Below, piece after piece: positions 10,889-34,839 of a DNA stretch of 34,839 nucleotides (the first letter of the stretch is position 1; every line of letters begins with the position of its first letter). The notes under the pieces are model-generated. The model made no database searches, was not told where the DNA came from, and was given only the letters and a program-made list of their open reading frames with translations. The DNA comes from Intoshia linei (taxonomy: Eukaryota; Orthonectida; Rhopaluridae). Both the position numbers and the translations under genes were made by a program. Where the stretch lies: assembly GCA_001642005.1 (NCBI GenBank), contig LWCA01000278.1, positions 1 through 34,839 of the forward strand, written 5' to 3'.

Positions 10889-11848
10889 TTAAATATCATC
10901 TTTCACATGGTAAACGTCGAATCGATGGTTGGTGTTGGGTAGAGAATGTATCGCAACATGAGAACCTAGTCCTCCATGGCTTGTTTTCTTTTGATAAAAT
11001 ACTGTTTTAATGCGACTGTGTAGTAGAGCCATTGAGCACATTATGCAAGGTTCAAAATGAAAAAATGCGTGCATATTTGTGCACAAATAATTGTTAAATA
11101 TTTCATCCAGTTTAATACAAGTTTCATTTTTATATTCATGTTGTATGGATTTGGTCAGTTGACATTTTGAAATTATATCGACAATATCCATAAAACCATG
11201 CCCCTTGATAAATTTATTACATTCTTTGGTTGGTACTCTCTTATGTAACTGTGATATTTTTTGATAATCATTCAATTCAGGTGAAAATATAAATATATTT
11301 GCTGGACTAATTAATATATTAAAATTTGATAGAGCGACCAAATTGTATTCTGAAGATACAATTAGCAATATTTTATCAATAAAATTTCTCTGAGAAATGA
11401 AAACATTATCAACTAATTTGTTTTCAATCAATGCGTCCTTTTTAAAATATATTGGCCAATAATGTGACACCATTTTTTTCTGAATTGACGTAAATACAGG
11501 CAAGGATGGTAGGTTTAAACAGAAAATACAAATTATGTCTCGACAAATATTTTTATCCGTTACGTTTATAATGGAATTTTTATTTCGCTTTTCATATACT
11601 AAATTGTATATATTAAAAAGAGAACAAGTTTTTTCAGAACAAATTAAAATATCGACATAATTATTTAATTTGATTGATCGGATTTGGTGAAAATGTTTAG
11701 GTAATGTATTGTTTAAATTCACATGACCCTTTAACCAATTTAACAATATTGCCACTGATTTTGTCTTTCGTATTCGAATCGCAACATATTTACAAAGGTT
11801 TATATCAGTTTCTGTATATTTTTTATCTAATATTGCTTCAATCTTCAT
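10889..11848 (-). CDS. ADAT3: ADAT3-like subunit of tRNA A34 deaminase, intronless
   Basis: The protein has 319 residues in one exon, starting at the ATG complementary to 11846-11848. ADAT3 partners ADAT2 to convert A34 to inosine in tRNA anticodons and is the structural, non-catalytic subunit. The C-terminal third is a CDA-type deaminase fold: zinc ligands His217 (KGHGFMDIVD) and Cys268/Cys271 (EPCIMCSMALLHSRI), then HGGLGSHVAIH and LPNTNHRFDVYHV, all characteristic of ADAT3. The catalytic Glu of active deaminases, two residues after the His, is Phe219 here (HGF); the family usually has Val. Residues 1-200 are diverged. It converges with Pbx (244 bp between stop codons). Confidence 0.88.
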   Translation of the reverse strand: MKIEAILDKKYTETDINLCKYVAIRIRKTKSVAILLNWLKGHVNLNNTLPKHFHQIRSIKLNNYVDILICSEKTCSLFNIYNLVYEKRNKNSIINVTDKNICRDIICIFCLNLPSLPVFTSIQKKMVSHYWPIYFKKDALIENKLVDNVFISQRNFIDKILLIVSSEYNLVALSNFNILISPANIFIFSPELNDYQKISQLHKRVPTKECNKFIKGHGFMDIVDIISKCQLTKSIQHEYKNETCIKLDEIFNNYLCTNMHAFFHFEPCIMCSMALLHSRIKTVFYQKKTSHGGLGSHVAIHSLPNTNHRFDVYHVKDDI

Positions 11849-11919
11849 TAATAATCTAAAAAAATATATAGACTCAACAACGCATCTGATTCAAATAACG
11901 TCGAAGGTTAATTTTAAAA

Positions 11920-13503: not shown

Positions 13504-14913
13504 TTATAATTTTCCACTCTTCTTTTTTTTAATATATTTAGGTACTTTGGTTTTAAGTTTTTCCTTTCGAATTAACCTTGCTGCATTTTTTCTTTCTTTT
13601 TTAGAAGCCAAATCTTCACCCCTTGGGCGAATAATGGTCAAATCAATTTTATCTACATTTTCTATAAATGTGTCGTCATCAGATTCCGTATTGAGACAAC
13701 TAGATTTACTTACATTTGAATTTTCAGATTGATCGTCATTTATAGATAAATCTCGAATATTTTTATTGTCAAACAAATGAGATTTTTGCAGTCTGTCCTG
13801 TTCATTTTCGTCTTCAAGATTTACAACGTCGTGTAAAGTGCGTGGTAAATAATCGTGTATAAACCCTGTATCGTCCAATCCAATATCTTGATCGAAACTT
13901 TCTTCAATCATTGAATCAATTAAATTTTCAAGGTGTACATCTAAGAAAGTCATATAATCATCTGAAACAGTTTCATTTAAATTTCTTTTAATTCTATTTT
14001 TATAACCATCCTCAAACGCGACAGTTCGTTTAATGATAAAATCAAACAGTCTCGTTAAAGACATGACGTTAGCTCCTGATTTATAAAAAAAATGGGTAAC
14101 GTTTTTGCAATCTTTTCGCAAGAAATGGAAAGCATTAGGATGATCGTGTTCGACTGCCTGAGAAACATCAATAACGGTTAAGAGTTCACTGGAATTATCA
14201 TACAACATATTAAATTCGCTTAAATCAGCGTGTACTAAATTGGCAACATTGTAAATTTGATACATGAGTCTAACACAGTCTTTATAAGTCTTGTCTATAT
14301 CACAAACTCTGGCTTTTTGTAACGTTTGCGTGGGCCATCCATCCTTACCCATAAATTCCATTAATAAAACATGCGAGTTGAGTAAAATTGGTTTGGGAGA
14401 TCTGATTTTGGCTTTTTGTAATCTAATTAAATTTCTAAACTCTTTTTCTGCCCATAGGCGAACCATTTGCGTAGGGTTGCGTTTTCTGTACCCTCTTCTA
14501 AATCGATAATCACCAATGACATACTTTTCACGGTCTCTAAAAACTAACACTGATGTTTTATATATTTTAATAGCACAGTGATCTCCATTTGGCGTTTGAG
14601 AGTGGTACACATTGGCCTCTTTTCCAGTACTAATGCAACCATTGATCAATTCCAAAATTCCTTTGTGAATCAACCTGCATAAAATAAGACGTGTTTTAGG
14701 ATCAATCACCTGTTCGATGGTCGCTCTGTCAGATTTGTCCTTTTCTCTACATTCACCAACTTCCTGCATTTGTAAGCAGGTTTCAATATTTTGGTTGGAT
14801 ACTGCTGGTTCATAACATGATAGACTTATTTTTGAATCATATTTTTCGTATTTTTGAATCTTACGTTGATAAGTTTTATCCACGGATACAGAAAAGTCTT
14901 TAGTTTTATTCAT
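13504..14913 (-). CDS. RIOK1: RIO1-family atypical serine kinase, intronless
   Basis: The protein has 469 residues in one exon. RIO1 kinases act in late cytoplasmic maturation of the 40S ribosomal subunit. Features: flexible N-terminus (1-70); RIO P-loop STGKEANVY at 95-103; ATP-site Lys116 in AIKIYK; RFRRGYRKRNP near 137-147; catalytic loop LVHADLSEFN with Asp230 and Asn235; metal-binding or phospho-acceptor Asp249 in IDVSQAVEHDHP. All key residues are present, so the enzyme should be active. After the kinase domain (about residue 335) comes an acidic stretch (370-425), then a Lys/Arg-rich tail (432-469), as in eukaryotic RIOK1. The start at 14913 gives the usual short N-terminus; the protein is shorter than vertebrate RIOK1, mainly at the N-terminus. 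ADAT3 lies downstream on the same strand. Confidence 0.96.
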   Translation of the reverse strand: MNKTKDFSVSVDKTYQRKIQKYEKYDSKISLSCYEPAVSNQNIETCLQMQEVGECREKDKSDRATIEQVIDPKTRLILCRLIHKGILELINGCISTGKEANVYHSQTPNGDHCAIKIYKTSVLVFRDREKYVIGDYRFRRGYRKRNPTQMVRLWAEKEFRNLIRLQKAKIRSPKPILLNSHVLLMEFMGKDGWPTQTLQKARVCDIDKTYKDCVRLMYQIYNVANLVHADLSEFNMLYDNSSELLTVIDVSQAVEHDHPNAFHFLRKDCKNVTHFFYKSGANVMSLTRLFDFIIKRTVAFEDGYKNRIKRNLNETVSDDYMTFLDVHLENLIDSMIEESFDQDIGLDDTGFIHDYLPRTLHDVVNLEDENEQDRLQKSHLFDNKNIRDLSINDDQSENSNVSKSSCLNTESDDDTFIENVDKIDLTIIRPRGEDLASKKERKNAARLIRKEKLKTKVPKYIKKKKSGKL

Positions 14914-15905
14914 TGTGATTGTTCAAATATTCTAATTTCAAATAAAACAAGTTTTGAAGATACAGATAAATTTTAATTATATAAATATCCAAAATGTATA
15001 AAAATGACTAATAATACTAATGTTTAATCTGTAAAGTTTAAACAGCATACGACTTAAAAATTTCACATGTAGTTATATAATTTAACAAATTTTAAATGTA
15101 GAGCGATAACACCATAAAACGTATTTAAACGATTGCACCATTTTAATTCAAAGGATTTTGTAGTAAAAATGTACAAGAAACAATTTAAATATGTATAAAA
15201 ATTACTTTTTTTTTTTTAATTGTAGTAAAGTTATTATCAAGTAATAAAGTATTATTAAAATTGATTAACCATGATTAACTAATTAGGTATTCAATTGAAA
15301 TGTATCAACATTGGAAGAACTAATGAGATTTAACTAATTAATTTAAAAATATTTGAATTACCATGATTTATTATACAATTAATGTTGGTGACGCCAAAAA
15401 TATAAACTGTTATACTAATGTTATAGCAACAAATTTCAATAAACTGTTCGACAGTTACTGTATTTATTGGTTACAGAACACGTCAGAATAAAATAGGAAT
15501 TTTCGAATGGTTTACATATCAAATGGTATTTTTAACAAATTAAAATTGGAAGAAATTTTCATTTAGGGAATATTCACGATAGAAGGCCCTTCTCATTAGA
15601 TTATATAAAAGAAATATTTTATTATATATACCAACTCATCGCTTTGTTGTAATTTTGCATTGATTTAAATTTTTAATTCTTTAATTTTGATACATAATTT
15701 TAGTTTTTCAACACTAATTGAGCCATTTTCAAATTTATCTGTTACTTCAAATTCCAATAACAAAGACAATGGACATTATCGAGGTGGTGGAAGGAGAATG
15801 GGAGGCATAAATCATAGTATATATTTTTATCAATATTTGGGTGTTGCAAAAAGTAGAAAATTTATTTTAATCATTCAGAAATTTAATAAATCCTACGTGA
15901 CATAG
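14914..15905. other. AT-rich region upstream of RIOK1, nothing recognised
   Basis: The RIOK1 promoter should lie at the left end of this interval. The open frame 15687-15905 contains a Gly-Gly-Gly-Arg-Arg stretch but no recognisable domain and is probably fortuitous. Confidence 0.4.
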
Positions 15906-17390: not shown

Positions 17391-17539
17391 ATAGAATTTT
17401 ATGATAGAATCGATTTTGACTTGAAATGATCGATTTGGAGACTGGATTGTTTGTTTTTTGGTTTGTAGATCTGGTTTGGTATTGATGTGCTCGTCTTGAT
17501 GGTTTTTATGTTTAGATTAATCTTATTATATTTGTTGAT

Positions 17540-19096
17540 TAAGAGGGTTGTGGTCAGTGTATATTTTGAAATGTTTCCCAAGTAAGTAGTATCTGAATTT
17601 CTTTAAGGCCCAACAAATTACCATTAATTCTAAATCTACAGCAGCATAATTTGATTGGGTAGGGTTAAGTTTTTTTAATATGTATGATATTGGTTTATTG
17701 TTTTGAAAAAGAACTGCTCCCAGTTCTAATTGTGAAGCATCTGTTTCAATATAAAATTGTTTTGTGAAATCAGGTGGATTTGATATTATTGACTTGATTT
17801 GGTCTAAAATTGATTGGCGTTGTTTATTCCATTGTATTTTCCTGTTTTTTATTTGGTTATATATAATGGACTAGCAATAGAGTTAAATTTTGGTATATAC
17901 TTTTGAAGGTATGCAAACATTCCTAATATTCGCTGAAGTTCTTTGATTGTTGTTGGTGTTGGAATATTTTTAATGGCTTCCGTTTTTTCCGGATCTGCTT
18001 TTGTGAGACGTTGTTTTACCATGAGACGTTGGCATGTGGAAGGGCATTTTTGAGTCTCTGTGGCATTACTCTGTTTTGATATTGAGTTTTTTCCATATCC
18101 TGTCGTGAATGCAGTTTTAAATCGAATAGTTATTTAAAGGAATTTGCCAGTAACCTGACTGGAGATCCAAGGTAGAAAATAATGTTTGTTCGCTCAATGA
18201 ACTTAATATGTTTTCAATATTTGCATGAGGATAGCTATCGCTGTGTGTTATTTTATTTATTTCTCGAAAGTTTCCCAACCAACGATATGAACCATCTTTC
18301 TTCTTTTTCATGAAGTGTGGGACACGAAAACTGCTATTTGATGGTTCAATCTGATTTTCATTTATCATACTTTTAATTAATTGTGTTCTGCTTGTTGGAG
18401 ATGCTTTGGAGTGGGGTAGTTTTTTGCTACTGGATGTTTAGAGCCTTCTATAATAGGTATTTCGTGATTAATGTTGTGTGTCAATCCGGGTTTAGTATCA
18501 AATACATCAGATTTTATCACTATTTATTTATATTTATTATTTATAATTTTTGGTAGATATTTCATTTAATTGTTTGGTTTTTATATATCCTAATTTTATT
18601 GAATCAGTTAATCGTAATAGATTGTCAGTGTTTTTTGTAATCATAAATTCGGAGGATAGCTGTTTGTTTAAAACAATTTTACCTTTCCGATTAAGTGTAA
18701 CTTTTGATTATTCGCCGCCAACAAAGTTTCATTTGTCTGTTGTATTTGAAGAGTAATGTCAAACTGGTTCAAGGTTTCTAAATTTAAACAGTTATCTTGA
18801 GTGCCAGTATCAATTATGCAATTAACTATTACCTCATCAGAGTTTGTTGATAATTTCACGTTTTCGCGCAAGTTTTTATTTTCAACTAGACGTACCTTTT
18901 TTTTGTAATAATTGTTGTTTTGATAGGGTTTTTGTGAATTATTCAATTCTTTATAAGTTTTCATAATGCTTATTAATTGTAATGGTTCATATCTCGTATA
19001 GCATATTTTTAGATCTGTCGGTATATCTATTCGACATCTCGCACCCTCAAGGATTAAGAACATATAAACATGGAACAACGGCGCTTTCTTTAGCAT
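17540..19096 (-). mobile_element. Degraded Ty3/gypsy-type retroelement pol remnant
   Basis: In minus-strand order: an aspartic protease segment (about 18840-18720, IIDTGTQDNCLNL; DTG is the catalytic motif), an RT fragment (18368-18117, with FREINKIT and STLDLQSGYWQIPL), an RT thumb/connection fragment (about 18010-17870), and an RNase H start (about 17810-17545, with the IETDAS catalytic-Asp motif and YTDHNPL). The region that should carry the RT catalytic Y-x-DD box, between the palm fragment and the thumb, is missing. Frames are broken by stops and shifts. No integrase or LTR pair was found. The order PR-RT-RH is that of gypsy elements. It is inactive. Confidence 0.85.
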
Positions 19097-24990: not shown

Positions 24991-25295
24991 ATTTTTAAAA
25001 CTAGACCCTCTTACTTTCTTAAACTGGTATACTGGATAAACTGGAACAGATAAATAGATTAATAAATAAACAGACATTTATTTTTACCGTTATTACTTTG
25101 TAAGGATCAACAATATCATCATTCGGAAAGATTATGTAGTTTAAAAAATAAAAATATTAACATGTAAATAAATTTATTAACGAATAAATGCGATTAAATA
25201 TGTATATTAAATTATATTGAATTATATCTTATAATAATTAAATTGACTCATTTACTTTGCCTAAATAATTAAAACATTAAAAACTGGTAAATATA
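24991..25295. other. AT-rich spacer beyond the mucin stop codon
   Basis: This is presumably the 3' untranslated and downstream region of the minus-strand mucin gene. TTTATT at about 25173 (AATAAA on the minus strand) is a possible polyadenylation signal. Nothing else was seen. Confidence 0.35.
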
Positions 25296-25727
25296 TTATA
25301 TACTGCAAGTAACTTTCCATGGCTCAAGTGGTTTACATGGTTTACATGATGAACACGCGCATGTAAGCGCACTGACCCATTTATCTGAACATTTCTTTCC
25401 ATCTTTGAATCCATTAATATTTTTAGTTTCTAATTAAACATAAGATGAAATAATAAATGAATTAAAATTAAAAATACTCGTGACTAAACATGTTAAACAG
25501 TGATGTGTGTTGTGTCTATGACTCTTTGTAATATCCTTAACCCTATGAGTATGTTCATAACCGACACAACATCCGTAGCAATAACCGAGATGCTATACAA
25601 TTATATTAAAAATTATAAAATGCTTCATTTTACGTATTCGCATCCGCTAACTTTGTCAATGACCGTTTCATGATATAGAGCACATTCTGTAATTGGCCTG
25701 AGAGTGGTAATGATTGTAGTACTTGGA
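25296..25727 (-). other. Mucin C-terminal cysteine-rich (cystine-knot-like) region
   Basis: Exons 25634-25727, 25478-25592 and 25296-25429 encode the end of the protein. Thirteen cysteines occur in about 95 residues, with GYCYGCCVGYEH in the middle and ALTCACSSCKPC near the end. The final C-x-C-x2-C and the central C-x2-CC clusters fit a C-terminal cystine knot (CTCK), the dimerisation module that ends VWF and gel-forming mucins. Cys spacing is not canonical throughout, so the assignment is probable rather than certain. The donor at 25476-25477 (GTATTT) is chosen because it alone keeps the frame open. Confidence 0.65.
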
Positions 25728-28700
25728 CTAATTTGATATAAATAATATTAAAATAATTCTTACGTTGTTGACGTTGAAGTACTTGTTGTTGGAGAACTAA
25801 TATATGGTTTGACATTAATATACAGTTATTATTATAAAAGTGTTACAGAATATAACATGGGGTAGGTGAACAGTTTTGATAAATGTAAAAAAATAATTTC
25901 ATTAATAATAAAAAGACCACACCATCACCTCGTTTTCGTCGCAAAATTCAAATATATCATATATGGTTGGATATGGATTATTATAATTCAGTGGTCATTC
26001 TTATGTATTATTTATTCTCTGCGGGTTTGCTAGGACCATCATCACTGTAGTAATGATTTTTATGTATAATGAAAAGTTTTATTTCTTTAACAAGGCCTAT
26101 TTACCATCTTAGATATGATACAATGCAAACGAGGATATAATTATATTGTGCATTGGACTGCATATATTTATATTTATTTACTTACGTAGTTGATGAAGTT
26201 AAAGTTGAATTAGGTATGATAATTAATGGTAATAATTTAAAATGTACCTTGTGGATGTCGATGTTGTAGTTGGAGTAGTAGTCGAACTTGTTGATGTTGT
26301 TGAGGTTGTAGGAGTACTGTTAAATTAAAAAATCAATATTATCAAAAATTATGCATAAGAAATTACGTTGTAGAAGTTCTAAAATAAATAATCAATGATA
26401 CAAATCAAAATACATTATCAAAAATTACGTGGATGTTGTAGGGGTAGTAGTAGTAGTTGTAGGGGTGGTAGTAGTAGTTGTAGGGGTGGTAGTAGTAGTT
26501 GTTGTTGTTGGGGTTGTTGTAGTTGAAGTTGTTGGGGTTGTTGTAGTCGAAGTTGTGGGGGTAGTAGTGGTAGTTGTTGGAGTTGAGGTAGTAGTAGTGG
26601 TTGTAGTGGTTGTAGGTGTTGTTGAAGTGGTAGAAGTAGACGATGTCGGTATTGTGGTTGTTGGTGTAGTAGTAGTTGTAGTACTAATATAAATATTACA
26701 TAATTATGAGTATTGTTATGAGTAAATATTAATAAAATATTACGTTGTAGATGTAGTAGACGTACTAGAATAAAATTATTAGAATTGATTTTAAAATTTT
26801 TTCAATAATTAAAAAAATAAATAAATACAAATATGATATTTTACAAAATTATTACCTTGTCGTTGTTGGTGTAGTAGTAGTTGTGGTTGGAGTGGTGGTA
26901 GTTGTTGTAGGAGTTGTAGTAGAAGTGGATGAGGTTGTCGTCGGCGTACTAATGATTAAAATTTTGCATGAATATATTTATAATGTTAGTGAATAAATTA
27001 CATTGTTGTCGTTGAAGTTGAAGACCTATTATAAAATAGAATAATCAATAAATAATTATTAAATGGACAATGTACATCATTATTAATGTTCTTAACTTAT
27101 AAAAATGTCAATGTATGTCTGTATTTTATGAATCATTTATTTAAAAAACTTAATTAAATATTTACATACTTATTTAAAAATATTCATTTAATCGTTTGAA
27201 TAGGTGTATTTTTTTATACTGAAAAGTATCTAACTATTTAAATTTATAAAAAAATTTTAAAATTACGATGTTGTCGTTGTAGGCGTAGTGGTTGTTCTAG
27301 TTGTTGGTGTTGTGGTAGATGTTGAGGTAGTTGAAGTAGTTGTAGGCGTTGTCGAAGTAGTTGATGTTGAAGAAGTTGTTGTGGGTGTAGTAGTTGTAGG
27401 TGTTGTAGAAGTAGTTGAAGTACTAGATGTACTAGTGGTTGTCGGTGTAGTTGTGGTAGTAGTGGGAGTAGTCGTAGATGTTGATGTTGTGGGAGTTCTA
27501 ATATTAGAAATATATTAATGTTTATTAAAGGCATACGTAGTAGTCGAAGTGCTAAATGAAAAGGTTATATAAATAAAACTGAATTTAATTTCTAAATGTA
27601 CCTTGTAGTGGTAGTTGAGGGAGTTGTAGTAGACGTAGATGTTGTCGTTGGTGTTCTAAACATTCCAGTTTAATAAATATTAATAGAGAACATGTATAAA
27701 ACTTAAATACACACCCTAATTTATCAGCGTATTTACTTCTACAAACCAATAATTTTACATATACATTTACATTTACAACAAATAATAAATAACAATGATA
27801 AATATCAACCATACATTTTACCACCATACAACTTTTATTATACTAATAAAATACATCTAAGGAAATTGACTTGTAGATCTACAATACGTTCCGCATTGAA
27901 GTAATAATAACATTATTATATAATTATAGCATAAACATACGTTGTAGTTGTTGGCGTAGTAGTTGTAGTGGTAGTAGTTGTAGTTGTGGGTGTCCTGTTA
28001 AATGAAAATAATAATTAAAAATATATTTACTTAATTGTTCATCTTAACCTTTTAACAATAATCATTAATTTTTATAATTTTATAAAAATTACGTTGAACT
28101 AGTGGTTGTAGGAGTCGTAGTTGTAGTTGTGGGAGTGCTAATATAATTATATATGATAAAATTGCATTATTATTTCAATGTAATAATATACCTTGTTGAA
28201 GTACTAAAATATTTATTTATTAATAAATCAAAATACACTCAAATTACCTCGTTGTAGAGGTTGTGGGAGTTGTGGTAGTTGAAGTGGTTGGAGTCGTTGT
28301 TGTACTTGTAGACGAACTAATAATTATATTTAGAAAACAAATTAAATAAATTGACTATTGAAATTAATGCTACCTAGAAAACATATAATAGTCTTATAGA
28401 TATTTCAAATATACATTATTAGTGTAAAGCTGACAAAAAATGCATATCAATAATGTCTAAACGTTGTTGGTATCATTATTAGAATGATGATATTAACTGT
28501 TCTCATTTAAAACTTTTAATATTATCATTTAAAATTACGTTGAAATGGTAGAAGTAGGTGTTGTTGTAGTTGTTGTTGGAGTAGTGGTTGTAGTTGTTGG
28601 AGTAGTAGAAGTAGTTGAAGTACTACTAAATTAGATTTATTGTAAATAATGTTTAAAACAGTACACATTAAAAATAAACTAATATACATTTACAAAATAT

Positions 28701-31700
28701 TATACCTTGAAGTACTTGAACTTGTCGTTGAAGTGCTAAATATTAAAATAAAAAAAATGTAATTCAAATATTAAAAAGATATTACCTGGTAGTTGTTGGG
28801 GTAGTAGTTGTTGTAGTTGTAGTAGTTGGGGTAGTAGTAGTAGAAGAAGTTGTCGTAGTAGTGGGTGTACTATAATAATGTTGAATTTATGGTAGTAATA
28901 TTATATTTAATTTTCGAATTTTTTGAATAAACTTACGTGGATGTAGTCAAAGTACTAAATTATACGATTATGATATGAATAAAAATGTCATTTAAACTAA
29001 ATTACCTTGAAGTAGAAGTGGAAGATGTAGTTGTGGGAGTTGTTGTCGTTGTTGAAGTAGAAGTTGTGCTGGTTGATGTGGTTGGACTTCTAATACAATG
29101 TAAAATTGAAAAAATTAATGTTATAAAATGTCATACGTAGTTGACGTCGTACTAAAATATAGTATAAATGATTATATAAATACAAACGTGGGAGTAGATG
29201 ATGTTGAAACAGTTGTACTTGTTGTTGAAGTTGTAGTACTTGTTGGACAATCAGTTATATTGACGCATATGCCATCTAGAATGTATATAAGAGTGGACAA
29301 AGTAATTCATACGATGTAAAACCAAATCTCTCTCACAGAAGCATCCGGCATAACAAGGAATATCACTGCAATTGTTGTGATTGTGAGGATGAATTCCAAT
29401 ATGGTGTTTATGTTGATGATTTCCACCAATTCCTAGACCATTAGCATTAGAGTTCTGGTACAAATGCATATCCCAGTAATTATCGCAAGTTAACTATATA
29501 GAATTTAAGTTACATTTTAACACGTAAATCAATAAATTAACTTGAATTCCACAAGGATGATAGTGAGTGCAATGATCACACATGATCGCTATAAATTTAT
29601 AATGAATTTTTAAATTTTAATAAATTGAAAATGTGTGCATTACGGCACAAATGTTGAGTTCTCCAATACACGTGAATTCCAACCAATGAACATTGAGATG
29701 CAAAATTTGAAATGGCAGTACAAACACATTCACATGCTCCTCCGGTTCGACAACTAAATTAACATTTAACATATGTTTTATTTTGTAAAAATACGCGCAG
29801 GCTTCATTAAGACATTCTTCATAGAAGTGCATGTACGAAGTAGCGCCCAAAACATCTCGGCATTCCTATTAATGAAAATGAATTTAAAAAACAAGATTAC
29901 TTCAAATTCAGGTCCTAATTTGATAATACGACAAACTTTGATGGCCCAAAGTTTACGGTTGTTTCTCTAAAATATTTGTAAAGTCACTTTGAGCATGTTG
30001 TTTTACCTCCAAACATTTTTCTGTGACGGCATTTTGAGTTGAATATGTTTGACATGGTTGGTAATCCAACATGTACTTATCGGTATATTCCAATACTGAC
30101 AACGAAACTTCATTAAATTCAAAATCGTTCATAGACATTCCATTGTAGTCACCGCAAAGTCCAGTCGTTGTCCCCATGCTGATATTTGGCATATATACGT
30201 GAACACGAGCTCCAACTAAAAAATTTTGATGAAATAATAATAACAAAAACTTTTCATATTCGATAAAAGATTAAAATTAGATTAAAATAGTTTACTTCTA
30301 TCCCAGTGAATAACGAATTTTGAAGAATATAAAACCACCCATATATTGTTGACATCAACAAACATGTTTTTGGCGTCCAATAAATTAATTTCCGGGTTAC
30401 TGATGAAATTTTTTGCGTTATGTAATGAAATTTCAATATCATCAATCATGATTGTAATTGCAATGGAGCAAGGCCTATCGTGATAGGTGCATAATTCCCT
30501 TTGCATCACAATTTCGACATCATCGTTTTTGACCAAAACAAATTTGCAAATACTGTTCAAATAGTAATGCGCATTATCGAAGGTCGTAATAGACCAACCA
30601 TGGACATTGCATTGTTGCATTGGGTGGAAACTTGTATCTTCCATAAGCTTCCATTCAAAGTCGTAGCATTTACTAATAAATGTATTTATATAAATAAAAC
30701 GTTTAAAGCAGCGCTCAACAACCTTAACGGTTCAACCAGTTTCTTATAATTAAACTTACTATGAAAGACATCCTTTTACGATTATACTTCCTGGTCCATA
30801 TGCTTTTCCACTGTAGTAACATGGGCATTTATTTTTTTCGACACATTTCCCCTAAAATTGTTTTATTAATTAAAATGCATTATAAACTTGATCGTTGTAA
30901 TATAATCCTTCAGGACAACCACACGCATTTTTTTCATGAACAAATGAAGGGCATTCCAATTCACTGTTAATATCTCTGCATAGTTTACCACAAAGTGGAC
31001 TCTTTTTTAAAAGTTGAGTATTTTTGCTGCATCGATCACAATTTTCACAATCCCATTTTCCATTTTGACACAAACTACAATATTGGATGTCATATACATA
31101 TATAATGTCATATAAAAAACATGTCATATAAAAAAAAAGATAAATTTTGAAAATCAATGAAATTACCATTTTTTACAAGATGGGGTTGCAATTGAAGCTC
31201 CAGAATTGTGATAGACAATGGAACCATCAATGTTAACAGGGTAATAACAACTACACTCTTTGATGTGTTTACATCTTGACAGATGATCTTTTAGGTAATT
31301 GTTACCACATCTACACCCTTGTACGCTTATATAATTGTCCGAAACAACGTCAAATTGTTGACCCAAGCAAGTAAATATTTGTCCTTCTGAATAATCAAAA
31401 TAGATTTCATTTTCTTTACATTCATACTCGGGAAGAGCTAAAAATTCATACTTATTTAATGTGAAATAGCTAAAATATACATGTATGTCTGTAAATTTGT
31501 CTGTTTGCCCATAATCATTTAATTATCAAAGAAAGAGGTCTAGAATTTTAAAAATACAAAATCTAGGAGGGCTTTTAAAATTATAAATTTAATTTATAAA
31601 TCTATCATAAACTTCAACATGAAAAACGCATTTTACTATTTAGATATTTAGATATTAAAATTTTTTATTTTTTAGGCTCATATTCCAAATCAAAAATGGA

Positions 31701-34700
31701 CACCTTCACCGTTGATTTTAAAATTAACACGAAAGACATAACAGACAAGCTATTATTTATCTAATTACTAGAGCAAGATTCCTCATTTGGCAATATTTTC
31801 TTGTAAATCCATTCACTCAAGTCTAAATGTTTAATACCATTCAAAATCGCTTCATGGATAAAATCAGCCATTAAAGCGCACAAAATTCTAGCATGTTGCT
31901 TGTAATCATTTTCCACAATTTTGTCAACACACCTGGCAATTGTTTCATCGACTTCATCTATTTCAATAACTTTTTGACAATTTGTAAAGACGGGGTGTTT
32001 GAAAACCTTGCAAACACTTCTAGCATAAGCTAAAGTGGATTTGGAAGGTAATTTTTTGGATCCCAAAGTATGGATGCTTTCTTTCACAGTGTTCAGATTG
32101 CATTGAGATCTGTACATTAAAACATATGATTCCTCATCACCTCCATCGAGTGAGTTATCCAATCTAATGTCATCAGTTACTTTCTCATTGTTATTTCCTA
32201 AACTTTAATTAATATTTAAATTTTTCCACAAAACCGCATAATCCTTTGACCTAAAATTATTATAAAATAAATTTAAAGCAAAACAACCTTTTTGTGTAAA
32301 ACTTCAGAAGCTTTAATGTATATACGTTGGAATTTAGTGTCATATGCGACAACAATTGTTTTATAGGAAACAGTTGTTATTTGATTGGTGGGTTGCTAAA
32401 AATAATAACTACATTTGAATAAACCAAACCTTGATGACGAATGATTTGTATTCATAAGGAATAGCCGATACATCTTCAACAGATAAAGATATTTCACCAA
32501 TTCTTACGTGACCCGACGAGGTAACAGTTACTGTTGTCTCATGATCCGTTATAATGATTTCATCAATAACATTTCCATGGTCAAATCTAGCGGAAATTTC
32601 AAAATCATTGTGCTAAATTAAATGGAAATATTTAAAATGACATTTCTAACATTGTAAATTTAAATAAAACCTTGACAAGCACGTATTTACAGGCTTTAGT
32701 TTCAATTTTGTATCTGTAATTATCAAAAGTTTTAATGCTTGGAGCACTAAATCCCATTATTCGACAATAAGACTCACAACCTTCGCCTTCTTTTGTTTTA
32801 TCACATTCCCATTCGCCACGTTCTTTACATGTACTAAAATGATACTTTACAATTTCCAATCAAATTTAGTACCATTGCACACATTTTATTTTTACTGAAA
32901 CTCCAACACTGTATGAATTTCCGTTGTAAATACAAGGACAACTTGAAACAGGTATGCAATTTTTTTTGTGATCAACATGGTCTAATAGAGGATGTAATTA
33001 GAATTAATTAAATTAATTTTTTTACTTGGATTAATGCAATGACATCCAGCGTAATTGAATTTGGCTGGTTTTTCTTTGAAATCCATGCAAGTTTTAGGGT
33101 ATCCGTTTCGATATGACATGTCAGCTCTAGGACATTTTGGAACTATAAATATACATTTACATTAAATAATAAATAAATAATGTTAAAGTTACTTGACTCG
33201 CAAACGGCATCCCATTGCAAATCGTTATCAGGGTTTTCTAAAGCCATAAGAGAGAAAATGGGGCATTTTGAATCATTTTCTTGGCATAACAATTTACTGC
33301 ACATTTTTTGCAAGATTCGAACATTATTTTTCTATTTATTGTTTAAATTATTCAATTAAAATAAATACATGAAATATTCATAAATATTATAAAAATTTAG
33401 AAAAATCTAAAATTACATAAAACGGATTGTCTTGGAACGCAATCATGTAGTTGCATCTGTTGGTGGCAGAATCTTGGGATTCTTGAGGACATTGATGTTG
33501 AACAATTTTACAATTTTCAATTATGCACTATATTAAAGTTACAAGTATTAAATTAGTAAATACATTATCTCCATAAACGAAAAGATTGGATAATCGTGGA
33601 ATGCAAATTTCATCATCATTATGTTCCTTTGAAACATATGCTAAATGTACAATTAAATTATTATAAAATTAAAAGGCAAACCTTTAATATCTTCTTCTGT
33701 TACTGCACAAAAACCACCAAAATCAGCTGGCTTCAATCGTTCAGTGTATATTCTCCAAAATCTCATGAGTTTATCAATAGAAATTTTGATTGAAAAAATT
33801 TCCAATTCAACCAATAATTTTGCTCGACGTGAAATCATGGCTCCTTTATAATGTAACGTTGATTTTAATAATTACAACCATTTACCTAGTACAAAGTCTG
33901 TCTCACTTTCATATGAATATTCTTCATCATTTAAATACAAAACTCCTCTGTCGAATTCAAAAATTACATTTTCGCCGTTAAAGTTGTATGATATTATTAT
34001 GTTGTTAAACTAAATTGATATATAATATATGCTATAATAGATAAACGAAAGAGATGAACATTAATTAATAAATTATGTATAATAAAATTTATTTTTATTC
34101 AAAAAGTTTTTCACACATTTTTCTGCCTTTTTCAATAATAAAATAAATTTTTACCAAAATACGCAATATAAACCATCGGCGAAAAGTAGATACATAAAGT
34201 GATTTGAAAAAATTAAATTTAATTTACCATTTCAATGCTACTTGTTTCATCTTTGCAGTTGAATTTAACATCTATTATTAAGGTGCCTTCCAGAAAATCG
34301 AAAATTCGATATTTACAAGATTTTGGATGCCAATAAAACACTCTTCCATTTAATAATTTCATTGAAGACCATTTTGCATTTCCAACAGAGAAGCACGAAA
34401 ATTCTTCGTTATCTCCTTCATTCTGTACACATTCTAAAATTTATTTATTATTAATTGCATTTGTTTATGCTTATTAAATTACTTTCCATATGTCCGTCAT
34501 AATCGTATATTTTTCCAACGTTTTTATTCAAATCTAAATCAGCGCTATCTTTATATTTACGTGTTATTTTTATTTCATCCTTTTGTATAGATTTTTGCCT
34601 TTCGTCGTCTTCCTCACGTCGTCTTGCATCATTTATTGCTTCATCTTCGTTATTAATTTTATTTGTGGGTCTGTTGCCATTGTCATGGTTATCATTCTCA

Positions 34701-34839
34701 TCCCACCTATCGTTATCTTTTTCTCCTACATTTTCATTGGTATTATTATCGTTATCTCTATTGTTCCTTTCTTTTGTAGGTCGTTTTCCATTGTCGTGAC
34801 CATCATTTTCATCCCACCTATCATTATCTTTTTCTCTTA
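25296..34839 (-). CDS. Secreted mucin-like protein: three VWD assemblies, Thr/Ser/Pro domain, cysteine-rich C-terminus (5'-partial)
   Basis: This is a 48-exon model that enters from the right edge and stops at TAA (25296-25298). All exons join in phase; the window holds 1880 residues. The order acidic repeat, VWD, VWD-C8-TIL, TIL, VWD-C8-TIL, PTS, cystine-rich end is that of gel-forming mucins and von Willebrand factor (D1-D2-D'-D3-PTS-CK). Hemocytin and other VWD proteins are relatives. Such proteins are secreted, O-glycosylated on the Thr/Ser part and cross-linked through Cys to make mucus or clots. Signal peptide and N-terminus lie beyond the window. Introns are mostly 35-60 bp. The first Cys of the CGLC multimerisation motif is absent from both readable D domains (VKGLCG, TTTGLCG). 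No neighbour is functionally related. The family is clear; the exact orthologue is not. Confidence 0.9.
25764..29151 (-). repeat. Mucin Thr/Ser/Pro domain encoded by 20 symmetric exons
   Basis: Exons, left to right: 25764-25796, 26248-26316, 26367-26378, 26429-26683, 26744-26764, 26856-26948, 27002-27025, 27267-27497, 27537-27551, 27602-27655, 27941-27994, 28093-28137, 28192-28203, 28248-28316, 28539-28622, 28706-28735, 28786-28869, 28937-28954, 29006-29089, 29137-29151. Lengths are 33, 69, 12, 255, 21, 93, 24, 231, 15, 54, 54, 45, 12, 69, 84, 30, 84, 18, 84 and 15 nt: all multiples of three and all in phase 2, totalling 434 residues, almost only Thr, Ser and Pro. Each is bounded by an AG acceptor and a GT donor. 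Such domains are heavily O-glycosylated. Confidence 0.88.
29188..29753 (-). other. Mucin D3 C8/TIL exons with a His-rich insertion
   Basis: Exons 29644-29753, 29542-29588, 29313-29493 and 29188-29275. The first has the C8 hallmark CRTGGACECVCTAISNFA and VYWRTQHLCP. A TIL-like unit follows (MCDHCTHYHPCG, LTCDNYWD, CYAGCFCERDLVLH, GICVNITDC) and runs directly into the Thr/Ser/Pro domain. Within it, between LTCDNYWD and the CSDIPC cysteines, lies NHQHKHHIGIHPHNHNN, nine His in 17 residues. The intron at 29276-29312 is only 37 bp; without it the frame would stop at once. Confidence 0.8.
29795..30672 (-). other. Mucin third VWD (D3-like) domain and start of C8
   Basis: Exons 30296-30672, 30007-30215, 29901-29966 and 29795-29865. 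The domain opens with CNVHGWSITTFDNAHYYL and ICKFVLVKNDD, the VWD start, and closes with TTTGLCGDYNGMSMNDFEF, the calcium-loop-like end. ECRDVLGATSYMHFYEEC begins the C8 module. All joins keep phase. Confidence 0.88.
30760..32197 (-). other. Mucin D2 C8 module, TIL domains and D' region
   Basis: Exons 31769-32197, 31167-31437, 30888-31074 and 30760-30851. The first, following GLCG, has ARSVCKVFKHPVFTNCQKVI, a C8 module, then a hydrophobic stretch with fewer cysteines than usual. The second is a TIL unit (CKHIKECSCYYP). The third carries CLCQNGKWDCENC and a second TIL (ACGCPEGLYYNDQ); with the fourth (GKCVEKNKCPCYYSG) it corresponds to D' of VWF and mucins. Confidence 0.82.
32235..32833 (-). 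other. Mucin second VWD (D2-like) domain with a 16-nt exon
   Basis: Exons 32671-32833, 32430-32612, 32288-32395 and 32235-32250. The first ends a VWC/TIL-type linker and opens the VWD (IKTFDNYRYKIETKACKYVL). The last is only 16 nt and encodes VKGLC plus one base; it is supported because it restores phase and supplies the conserved GLCGNNN motif when joined to 32197. Confidence 0.85.
32873..34433 (-). other. Mucin first VWD (D1-like, diverged) domain, C8 and TIL
   Basis: Exons 34228-34433, 33886-34009, 33682-33843, 33564-33640, 33417-33527, 33193-33331, 33026-33142 and 32873-32981. SCKYRIFDFLEGTLIIDVKF fits a VWD core; its end is GGFCAV instead of GLCG. A Cys-poor C8-like part follows (CIIENCKIVQHQCP, KMCSKLLCQEND), then a TIL (KCPRADMSYRNGYPKTC, YAGCHCINP) and VSSCPCIYNGNSYSVG. 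It is the most diverged of the three assemblies. Confidence 0.75.
34483..34839 (-). other. Mucin N-terminal acidic repeat exon (runs off the window)
   Basis: An open frame from the window edge down to the donor at 34481-34482 encodes a very hydrophilic Asp/Asn/Glu/Lys/Arg stretch. A 111-bp (37-residue) unit is tandemly repeated: EKDNDRWDENDxHDNGxRPT occurs twice, from about 34665 to 34839, and more copies may lie outside. The tail (about 34490-34640) is charged, with RRREEDDER. Confidence 0.8.

What the first reader, a model, noticed from the sequence alone, without database searches (positions are those of the whole stretch)
25764..29151. Mucin Thr/Ser/Pro domain built from 20 symmetric exons as short as 12 nt
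Mucin PTS domains are usually coded by one very large exon with tandem repeats. Here the same type of protein sequence is split into 20 exons of 12-255 nt, every one a multiple of three and phase 2. Lengths recur (84 nt three times; 69, 54, 15 and 12 nt twice each). Any exon can be skipped or included without breaking the frame, so alternative splicing could make length variants of the glycosylated domain. Repeated exon-plus-intron duplication is the likely origin. Each boundary is visible in the sequence; the splicing consequence is inference.
Basis: partly seen in the sequence, partly recalled or inferred. Interest (0 to 1): 0.82.

Follow-up and report, generated by a model that had tools for sequence, protein, structure and literature searches.

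The report
Mucin domain split into tiny exons
A mucus protein gene of a tiny parasitic worm codes its sugar-carrying region in twenty small exons that can each be left out without breaking the reading frame, which is a real but not unprecedented gene design that could let the animal vary mucin length by splicing.

Summary
The window is one contig of the orthonectid Intoshia linei. On the minus strand a gel-forming-type mucin gene (VWD, C8 and TIL assemblies related to MUC2, MUC5 and VWF) has a 435-residue Thr/Ser/Pro region in 20 exons of 12-255 nt, all GT-AG, multiples of three and phase 2. A predictor that enforced neither frame nor phase found them; the deposited protein 'Ovomucin, beta-subunit, partial' contains 17 of the 20 and lacks 27941-27994, 27002-27025 and 26744-26764, all in frame. 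That is either a splice variant or an annotation gap; I cannot tell which. One detail is wrong: 84 nt occurs twice, not three times. New here: short Pro-free exons never adjoin each other but sit between longer exons that mostly begin T/S-P-T-T; introns tend to be long where two longer exons meet, and one holds what looks like a decayed short exon. The proposed exon-plus-intron duplication has no clear DNA support: introns and synonymous codons resemble each other no more than shuffles, so any duplication is old. Multi-exon mucin domains are known (chicken Muc13 and MUC2, schistosome SmPoMuc; MEGs for symmetric micro-exons). New variant of a known kind, medium interest.

The parts
29188..29275 (-). 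Flanking exon E0: end of cysteine-rich region and start of Thr/Ser run; leaves phase 2
29137..29151 (-). PTS exon E1, 15 nt, Pro-free, phase 2-2
29006..29089 (-). PTS exon E2, 84 nt, starts SPTT
28937..28954 (-). PTS exon E3, 18 nt, Pro-free
28786..28869 (-). PTS exon E4, 84 nt, starts TPTT
28706..28735 (-). PTS exon E5, 30 nt, Pro-free
28539..28625 (-). PTS exon E6, 87 nt
28248..28316 (-). PTS exon E7, 69 nt
28192..28203 (-). PTS exon E8, 12 nt, Pro-free; present in the deposited protein
28093..28137 (-). PTS exon E9, 45 nt, starts TPTT
27941..27994 (-). PTS exon E10, 54 nt, starts TPTT; absent from the deposited protein
27602..27655 (-). PTS exon E11, 54 nt, starts TPTT
27537..27551 (-). PTS exon E12, 15 nt, Pro-free
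27267..27497 (-). PTS exon E13, 231 nt, starts TPTT
27002..27025 (-). PTS exon E14, 24 nt, Pro-free; absent from the deposited protein
26856..26948 (-). PTS exon E15, 93 nt, starts TPTT
26744..26764 (-). PTS exon E16, 21 nt, Pro-free; absent from the deposited protein
26429..26683 (-). PTS exon E17, 255 nt; contains a near-exact 21-nt tandem repeat (26435-26502)
26367..26378 (-). PTS exon E18, 12 nt, Pro-free; present in the deposited protein
26248..26316 (-). PTS exon E19, 69 nt, starts TPTT
26185..26199 (-). Candidate decayed short exon inside intron 25797-26247: Thr/Ser codons running into GTAAGT, no AG acceptor between the intron start and it
25764..25796 (-). PTS exon E20, 33 nt, starts SPTT
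25634..25727 (-). Flanking exon E21: end of Thr/Ser run and start of C-terminal cysteine-rich region; entered in phase 2
25241..25592 (-). Last three coding exons (25478-25592, 25304-25429, 25241-25260): cystine-knot-like C-terminus, weak Pfam match
29313..34825 (-). 24 upstream exons of the deposited model: acidic N-terminal part (cut by contig end), then VWD/C8/TIL assemblies

Best explanation
This is a gel-forming-type mucin gene of Intoshia linei. Its Thr/Ser/Pro domain (435 residues with all exons in) is spliced together from 20 phase-2 symmetric exons separated by introns of mostly ordinary size for this animal. The array behaves as a repeat of a two-exon module: a short Ser-rich exon without Pro, and a longer exon that mostly starts T/S-P-T-T. 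Modules were gained long ago and some short exons have since been lost by splice-site decay. Because every exon is phase 2-2, inclusion, skipping or decay of any one changes only how many O-glycosylation sites lie between the polymerising D domains and the C-terminus. Shown: exon anatomy, phases, domain content, placing of the exon classes, and a deposited protein that lacks three exons in frame. Inferred: old module duplication, decay, tolerated or used skipping, and O-glycosylation.
For: Exon anatomy: 20 of 20 without enforced phase. 17 of 20 in the deposited I. linei protein, including both 12-nt exons. Phase 2 in 18 of 18 PTS introns of that model versus 4 of 27 others. Domains: VWD E=1.3e-25 and C8 E=1.6e-13 in P0121; VWF, Mucin-2 and Mucin-5 solved chains down to 7e-65. 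Module: class string BABABAABAAABABABABAA, no two Pro-free exons adjacent (P=0.010); introns between two Pro-containing exons 98-451 nt (4 of 19) versus 39-241 nt for the other 15 (p=0.001); Pro as second full codon in 9 of 20 exons (p=5e-5); short exons (33 nt or less) richer in Ser, 19 of 51 versus 57 of 364 codons (p=7e-4). Fossil-like Thr/Ser stretch with intact GTAAGT in one long intron. Three exons absent in frame from the deposited protein.
Against: Introns show no clear similarity (best score 34, shuffle maxima average 35.8; the mean pair score is slightly above shuffles, 18.48 against 18.03 with sd 0.26), and synonymous codons between different exons do not exceed shuffles. The exon classes were defined after seeing the data, and lack of Pro is partly a length effect (Pro 1 of 51 versus 40 of 364, p=0.044). 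Intron 27026-27266 (241 nt) is long without lying between two Pro-containing exons. Sense T/S/P runs in introns number only 2 (antisense 1), a level reached in 6 of 300 shuffles; only one of the two looks like an exon. The internal GT dinucleotides of the exons are phase 2 in only 6 of 16. No RNA evidence was available; the absent exons may be an annotation gap.
Confidence: 0.55

Rival explanations
1. Independent intron gain into an old uninterrupted Thr/Ser/Pro repeat. In text made almost wholly of ACN, TCN, CCN and AGY codons, AG falls only at codon positions 1-2, so the usual exon-end and acceptor signals fall in phase 2; uniform phase would then reflect codon grammar, not common descent of exons.
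For: 8 of 21 split codons are AG|Y while AGY makes up only 11 of 415 inner codons (Fisher 3.7e-7). All 12 internal AG dinucleotides of the 20 PTS exons lie in phase 2, against 48 of 148 in 22 of the 29 other exons. No clear intron similarity. Another T/S/P-rich stretch of this genome (C106) is one undivided run of about 290 nt, so an undivided state exists here.
Against: Does not by itself explain the recurring T/S-P-T-T exon start, the placing of the classes, or long introns where two longer exons meet. The AG|Y enrichment can also come from selection for good donor sites after duplication. 11 of 21 split codons are AC|N. The grammar does not hold for donors: internal GT is phase 2 in 6 of 16 and phase 1 in 10 of 16.
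Confidence: 0.3
2. Regulated cassette splicing: stage- or tissue-specific sets of exons make defined mucin lengths, as described for schistosome micro-exon genes. (Compatible with either origin.)
For: Every exon is frame-neutral. The deposited protein lacks three. The smallest exons (12-18 nt, five of them) were kept in that model while exons of 21, 24 and 54 nt were not, so size alone does not explain the omission.
Against: No transcript data seen. The three absent exons rank 2nd (E10), 4th (E14) and 9th (E16) weakest of 20 by a splice score trained on 27 other introns of this gene, as expected also for a missed prediction. Chicken MUC2, with a multi-exon mucin region, yielded one characterised splice variant (PMC3549977, passages).
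Confidence: 0.25
3. Neutral bookkeeping: the exons are spliced constitutively, and the symmetric layout persists only because gain or loss of such exons is harmless in a domain that tolerates any length. (Compatible with either origin.)
For: Ordinary intron sizes (median 53 nt here; species median 57 bp, PMC6543705 passage). One fossil-like exon. No sign of recent copying of exon-intron units.
Against: The deposited protein is not the full set, though this may be an annotation gap.
Confidence: 0.4

Closest known systems
Gel-forming mucins and von Willebrand factor (MUC2, MUC5AC, MUC5B, VWF)
   Same: VWD, C8 and TIL assemblies followed by a Thr/Ser/Pro domain and a cysteine-rich C-terminus; solved-structure matches down to 7e-65.
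   Different: Human MUC2 has its repeats on one large exon (PMC3549977 passage); here the domain is in 20 small exons. Cystine-knot match is weak (Pfam E=0.38). N-terminus cut off.
Chicken and zebrafish Muc13 (PMC1552070, abstract and passages)
   Same: Mucin domain in several exons; for chicken, each exon codes one repeat, and length control by splicing was already proposed there.
   Different: Muc13 is a transmembrane SEA mucin; the chicken exons code near-identical 20-residue repeats; here lengths run from 12 to 255 nt and sequences have diverged.
Chicken MUC2 (PMC3549977, passages, one short section, and part 1 of 5 of the section with its exon table)
   Same: A gel-forming mucin with its repeat region over exons 32 to 44 or 45, and one characterised in-frame splice variant.
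   Different: The listed exons there (exons 32-38: 603, 239, 198, 11, 423, 244, 44 nt, several of them affected by assembly gaps) are not uniformly multiples of three; here 20 of 20 are.
Schistosoma micro-exon genes, MEGs (PMC5825161 and PMC4015677, passages)
   Same: Symmetric micro-exons that can be skipped in frame; secreted or membrane-anchored products, some predicted to be O-glycosylated.
   Different: MEGs are micro-exons over about 75-80% of the coding sequence; here they form only part of the Thr/Ser/Pro region of a large multidomain mucin, mixed with longer exons.
Schistosoma mansoni polymorphic mucins, SmPoMuc (PMC2576457, passages; also PMC4015677)
   Same: A parasite mucin whose repeat region is made of a repeated 27-bp exon; splicing adds to length variation.
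   Different: There exon and introns repeat as about 1-kb units whose intronic part is more than 94% identical, in several genes; here introns show no clear similarity, and VWD and C8 searches of the assembly hit only this gene.
CD45 exons 4-6 and titin PEVK exons (recalled, no call)
   Same: Frame-neutral exons that tune the length of a flexible or O-glycosylated region.
   Different: Unrelated proteins; not compared here.

Membership tests
Gel-forming mucin | VWD-C8-TIL assemblies before the mucin domain | tested here: met
   VWD 2 stretches and C8 2 stretches, both families above cut-off in P0121, TIL 2 stretches at 22.2 bits against a cut-off of 24.5 (24.7 bits in my own model); VWF and mucin solved structures.
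Gel-forming mucin | Thr/Ser/Pro-rich domain | tested here: met
   294 Thr, 76 Ser and 41 Pro among 415 whole codons of the 20 exons.
Gel-forming mucin | C-terminal cystine knot | tested here: inconclusive
   Right place and cysteine-rich, but Pfam Cys_knot E=0.38, below its cut-off; the only solved-structure match up to E 10 was an unrelated thioredoxin (E=0.028); protein search with this part scored none of 3 candidates at E 1 or better.
Gel-forming mucin | Signal peptide and complete N-terminus | not testable with these tools
   The contig ends inside the gene; the deposited protein is marked partial.
Gel-forming mucin | Three VWD domains | tested here: inconclusive
   Pfam reports 2 VWD stretches; a further, more N-terminal cysteine-rich part resembles an assembly only by eye.
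Schistosome-type micro-exon gene | Symmetric micro-exons (6-36 bp) make up most of the coding sequence | tested here: not met
   9 of the 20 PTS exons are 36 nt or shorter, 180 nt in all (lengths), beside a deposited protein of 1849 residues.
Schistosome-type micro-exon gene | Exon-skipping variants in RNA or protein | not testable with these tools
   No transcripts held; only the deposited model lacking 3 exons.
SmPoMuc-type exon repeat | Exon plus flanking introns repeated at high identity | tested here: not met
   Best of all intron pairs no better than shuffles.
Muc13-type multi-exon mucin domain | One exon equals one near-identical repeat unit | tested here: not met
   Lengths 12-255 nt; codon matches between different exons within the shuffle range.

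The most novel reading that the evidence does not exclude
A gel-forming mucin (the only such gene found in this assembly) whose brush length is set by combinatorial inclusion of up to 20 frame-neutral exons of two interleaved classes. The Thr/Ser/Pro codon grammar makes acceptor-type splice choices frame-safe (every internal AG in phase 2, though not every internal GT), so the mucin domain tolerates splicing variation as an evolved or exapted property. The deposited protein without three exons would be one such natural variant.
Probability: 0.22. Interest if true: 0.7.

Novelty: new variant of a known kind. Interest (0 to 1): 0.42.

Why it matters
If RNA confirms variable inclusion, this would be a gel-forming mucin whose glycosylated length is set by splicing and not by repeat alleles, in an animal with a very reduced body. 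Independently, the codon argument (AG only at codon positions 1-2, hence phase-2 acceptors) is a simple, testable rule for why introns inside Thr/Ser/Pro regions may share one phase, and could be checked in any genome with multi-exon mucin domains.

Tried and rejected
Recent exon-intron duplication: rejected. Best intron-intron score 34, reached in 43 of 60 shuffles; mean pair score 18.48 against 18.03 with sd 0.26, a slight excess. Codon-level comparison of different exons stays within 150 shuffles that keep the protein fixed; the internal repeat of exon 17 scores 28.0, against a shuffle mean of 15.7 and a shuffle maximum of 28.0 for that comparison, and is also seen as a 21-nt tandem repeat with 97% matches.

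Readings of the intervals as coding sequence: rejected, since 21 of 21 introns carry an in-frame stop.

Chance micro-exons: rejected by 2000 shuffles with no hit. The 12 control loci in that call were chosen because they hold Thr/Ser/Pro-like patterns, and some overlap (L018 lies in L029, L019 in L030); they gave 2 matches, both 21 nt, possibly one site counted twice, and not inspected.

A general habit of this genome: the phase-2 acceptor pattern has 18 exact matches in the assembly (a lower bound by the tool's own note), all on the minus strand of their contigs; 14 lie in this region (10 at exon acceptors, 4 at internal AG) and 4 elsewhere (reversed-pattern control 4+3). Phase-0 and phase-1 versions gave 2 and 5 scattered matches (controls 1+1 and 4+8). 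The two C106 matches lie inside one undivided T/S/P run; those on C617 and C1130 lie on loci with only short runs and were not analysed as genes. The 12-nt exon pattern gave 1 match in the assembly, control 2, so that pattern alone is not rare evidence.

Stronger splice sites in short exons: not significant (p=0.26).

Mitochondrial COX1 for naming the species: no match. RIO1 kinase search gave only distant named animals among the 120 listed of 5669. Isoform fragments via the C-terminus: none. The 2016 I. linei genome paper is not held, so how its gene models were made was not read; a passage of PMC12249979 mentions an RNA-seq assembly for the species.
Full report
What it is. The window is the whole of contig C582 in a 34.65-Mb assembly. 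A protein search with my rough gene model returned 'Ovomucin, beta-subunit, partial [Intoshia linei]', 1849 aa, on a contig of 34,839 bases, 94% identical over 93% of the query; this record maps exactly to the window. Intoshia linei is an orthonectid. The other 3 of the 4 proteins that passed E 0.001 among 2573 candidates were a Trichogramma hemocytin, a Festucalex 'mucin 5e' and a Plectropomus 'mucin-2-like'. In the deposited protein Pfam finds VWD (1.3e-25), C8 (1.6e-13) and TIL (22.2 bits, cut-off 24.5; 24.7 in my model); solved chains of VWF, Mucin-2, Mucin-5AC and Mucin-5B match down to 7e-65. The C-terminal part is cysteine-rich but matches the cystine-knot model only at E=0.38. In the assembly, VWD and C8 searches hit only this gene (six-frame, so introns reduce sensitivity).

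The observation. Reading the minus strand from 29151 to 25764 gives 20 Thr/Ser/Pro exons of 15, 84, 18, 84, 30, 87, 69, 12, 45, 54, 54, 15, 231, 24, 93, 21, 255, 12, 69 and 33 nt, 1305 nt or 435 codons in sum. All have GT-AG introns and phase 2 at both ends. A gene model that enforced neither frame nor length recovered 19 of 20 and, with weights adjusted after that result, 20 of 20; it favoured T/S/P codons. The deposited protein, which does not depend on my model, uses 17 of 20 including both 12-nt exons; the parse is unique. In it, 18 of 18 PTS introns are phase 2, against 4 of 27 others (12 phase 1, 11 phase 0), Fisher 4e-9; non-PTS internal exons are multiples of three in 8 of 26 counted cases. 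The 21 introns of the region have a median of 53 nt (36-451); the species median is 57 bp (PMC6543705, passage).

Not chance. With a strict definition (pyrimidine-AG, only T/S/P codons, GTR), the gaps between the larger exons hold 5 micro-exons of 12-21 nt; none of 2000 dinucleotide shuffles gave one, and the plus strand of the window has none. Symmetric phase-0 or phase-1 candidates of the same size were absent from the region. Retaining any of the 21 introns brings a stop within nine codons, 13 of 21 times as the second codon: a phase-2 intron that starts GTAA reads as xxG-TAA.

Structure inside the array. Eight exons have no Pro among their whole codons (E1, E3, E5, E8, E12, E14, E16, E18; 12-30 nt) and twelve have some. 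In order they read BABABAABAAABABABABAA; two Pro-free exons are never adjacent (P=0.010), and introns between two Pro-containing exons are long (98, 222, 285, 451 nt against 39-241 for the other 15, p=0.001). Nine of the twelve Pro-containing exons begin T/S-P-T-T (9 of 20 exons with Pro at that place, p=5e-5). Exons of 33 nt or less are Ser-rich (19 of 51 versus 57 of 364 codons, p=7e-4). I chose these features after seeing the data, and lack of Pro is partly a matter of length. The longest intron (25797-26247) contains at 26185-26199 a short Thr/Ser stretch running into GTAAGT with no AG between the intron start and it (sequence), like a short exon that lost its acceptor. All sense T/S/P runs of four codons or more in the introns number 2 (antisense 1), a level reached in 6 of 300 shuffles. 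B-like text (SSTSTTSTT) also occurs inside exons E13 and E17, seen directly in the translation.

Origin. Present-day DNA gives no clear support to recent exon-plus-intron copying: the best intron pair scores 34 against a shuffle mean maximum of 35.8 (43 of 60 shuffles reach it), with a slightly raised mean score (18.48 against 18.03, sd 0.26); codon identity between different exons stays within 150 shuffles that keep the protein fixed; only E17 has a near-exact 21-nt internal repeat. So either the modules are old and have lost DNA similarity, or introns entered an existing repeat. For the second view: 8 of 21 split codons are AG|Y while AGY is 11 of 415 inside, and all 12 internal AG of the exons (11 AGY and one AGA) are phase 2, against 48 of 148 in 22 of the 29 other exons. 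Against a full grammar rule: internal GT is phase 2 in 6 of 16 and phase 1 in 10 of 16, so alternative donors inside exons would often break the frame. For the first view: regular exon starts, the placing of the classes, and long introns where a short exon seems missing. I favour old modules with later decay, at moderate confidence.

Splicing. All 20 exons can be left out in frame. The deposited protein leaves out E10 (54 nt), E14 (24 nt) and E16 (21 nt) while keeping five exons of 12-18 nt. By a splice score trained on the 27 non-PTS introns, E10, E14 and E16 rank 2nd, 4th and 9th weakest of 20, p=0.045 as a group, which fits either real skipping or a missed prediction. RNA sequence for the species exists according to a passage in PMC12249979, but I could not read how this gene model was made.

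Comparison. Multi-exon mucin domains and the idea of splicing-controlled length are in print: chicken Muc13 (PMC1552070, abstract and passages); chicken MUC2, with repeats over exons 32 to 44 or 45 and one characterised in-frame variant (PMC3549977, passages and exon table). Symmetric micro-exons with skipping are the mark of schistosome MEGs (PMC5825161 and PMC4015677, passages), and SmPoMuc mucins repeat a 27-bp exon with nearly identical introns (PMC2576457, passages). A search for Intoshia linei with mucin found 0 papers. The other listings, several of them capped (4 of 4; 35: 15 of 49; 36: 15 of 29; 39: 8 of 9; 49: 12 of 119; 62: 0; 63: 10 of 12), showed no title or abstract start on this exon layout in a gel-forming mucin; that covers only the held open library. 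The gene is therefore, as far as I can see, a new variant: an invertebrate gel-forming-type mucin with a fully phase-2 exon array reaching down to 12 nt. CD45 and titin parallels are recalled only.

Verdict. Observation sound; functional reading possible but unshown; origin story without clear DNA support; known in kind. Interest 0.42. The confidences of the rivals overlap, since origin and splicing use are separate questions.

Noticed in passing
window 34483-34839, minus strand: The N-terminal part of the mucin, cut by the contig end, is an acidic, Asn/Asp-rich repeat (KDNDRWDENDxHDNG twice), which I would not expect before a VWD region.
   Followed up: no
window 32235-32250, minus strand: A 16-nt exon outside the PTS region in the deposited model, not a multiple of three, between VWD-region exons.
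   Followed up: no
window 13504-14922, minus strand: RIO1 kinase gene in one open frame; apart from itself the 120 listed hits are 38-48% identical.
   Followed up: partly
window 10889-11890, minus strand: Open frame with a weak C-terminal deaminase match, below the curated cut-offs; looks like an ADAT3-type protein (recalled).
   Followed up: no
window 17526-18437, minus strand: Reverse-transcriptase and RNase H pieces of a retroelement in separate open frames.
   Followed up: no
L028 5132-5422 (C106), minus strand: Another Thr/Ser/Pro-rich stretch in this genome, undivided over about 290 nt; neighbouring frames look ShK-like by eye (name recalled).
   Followed up: partly
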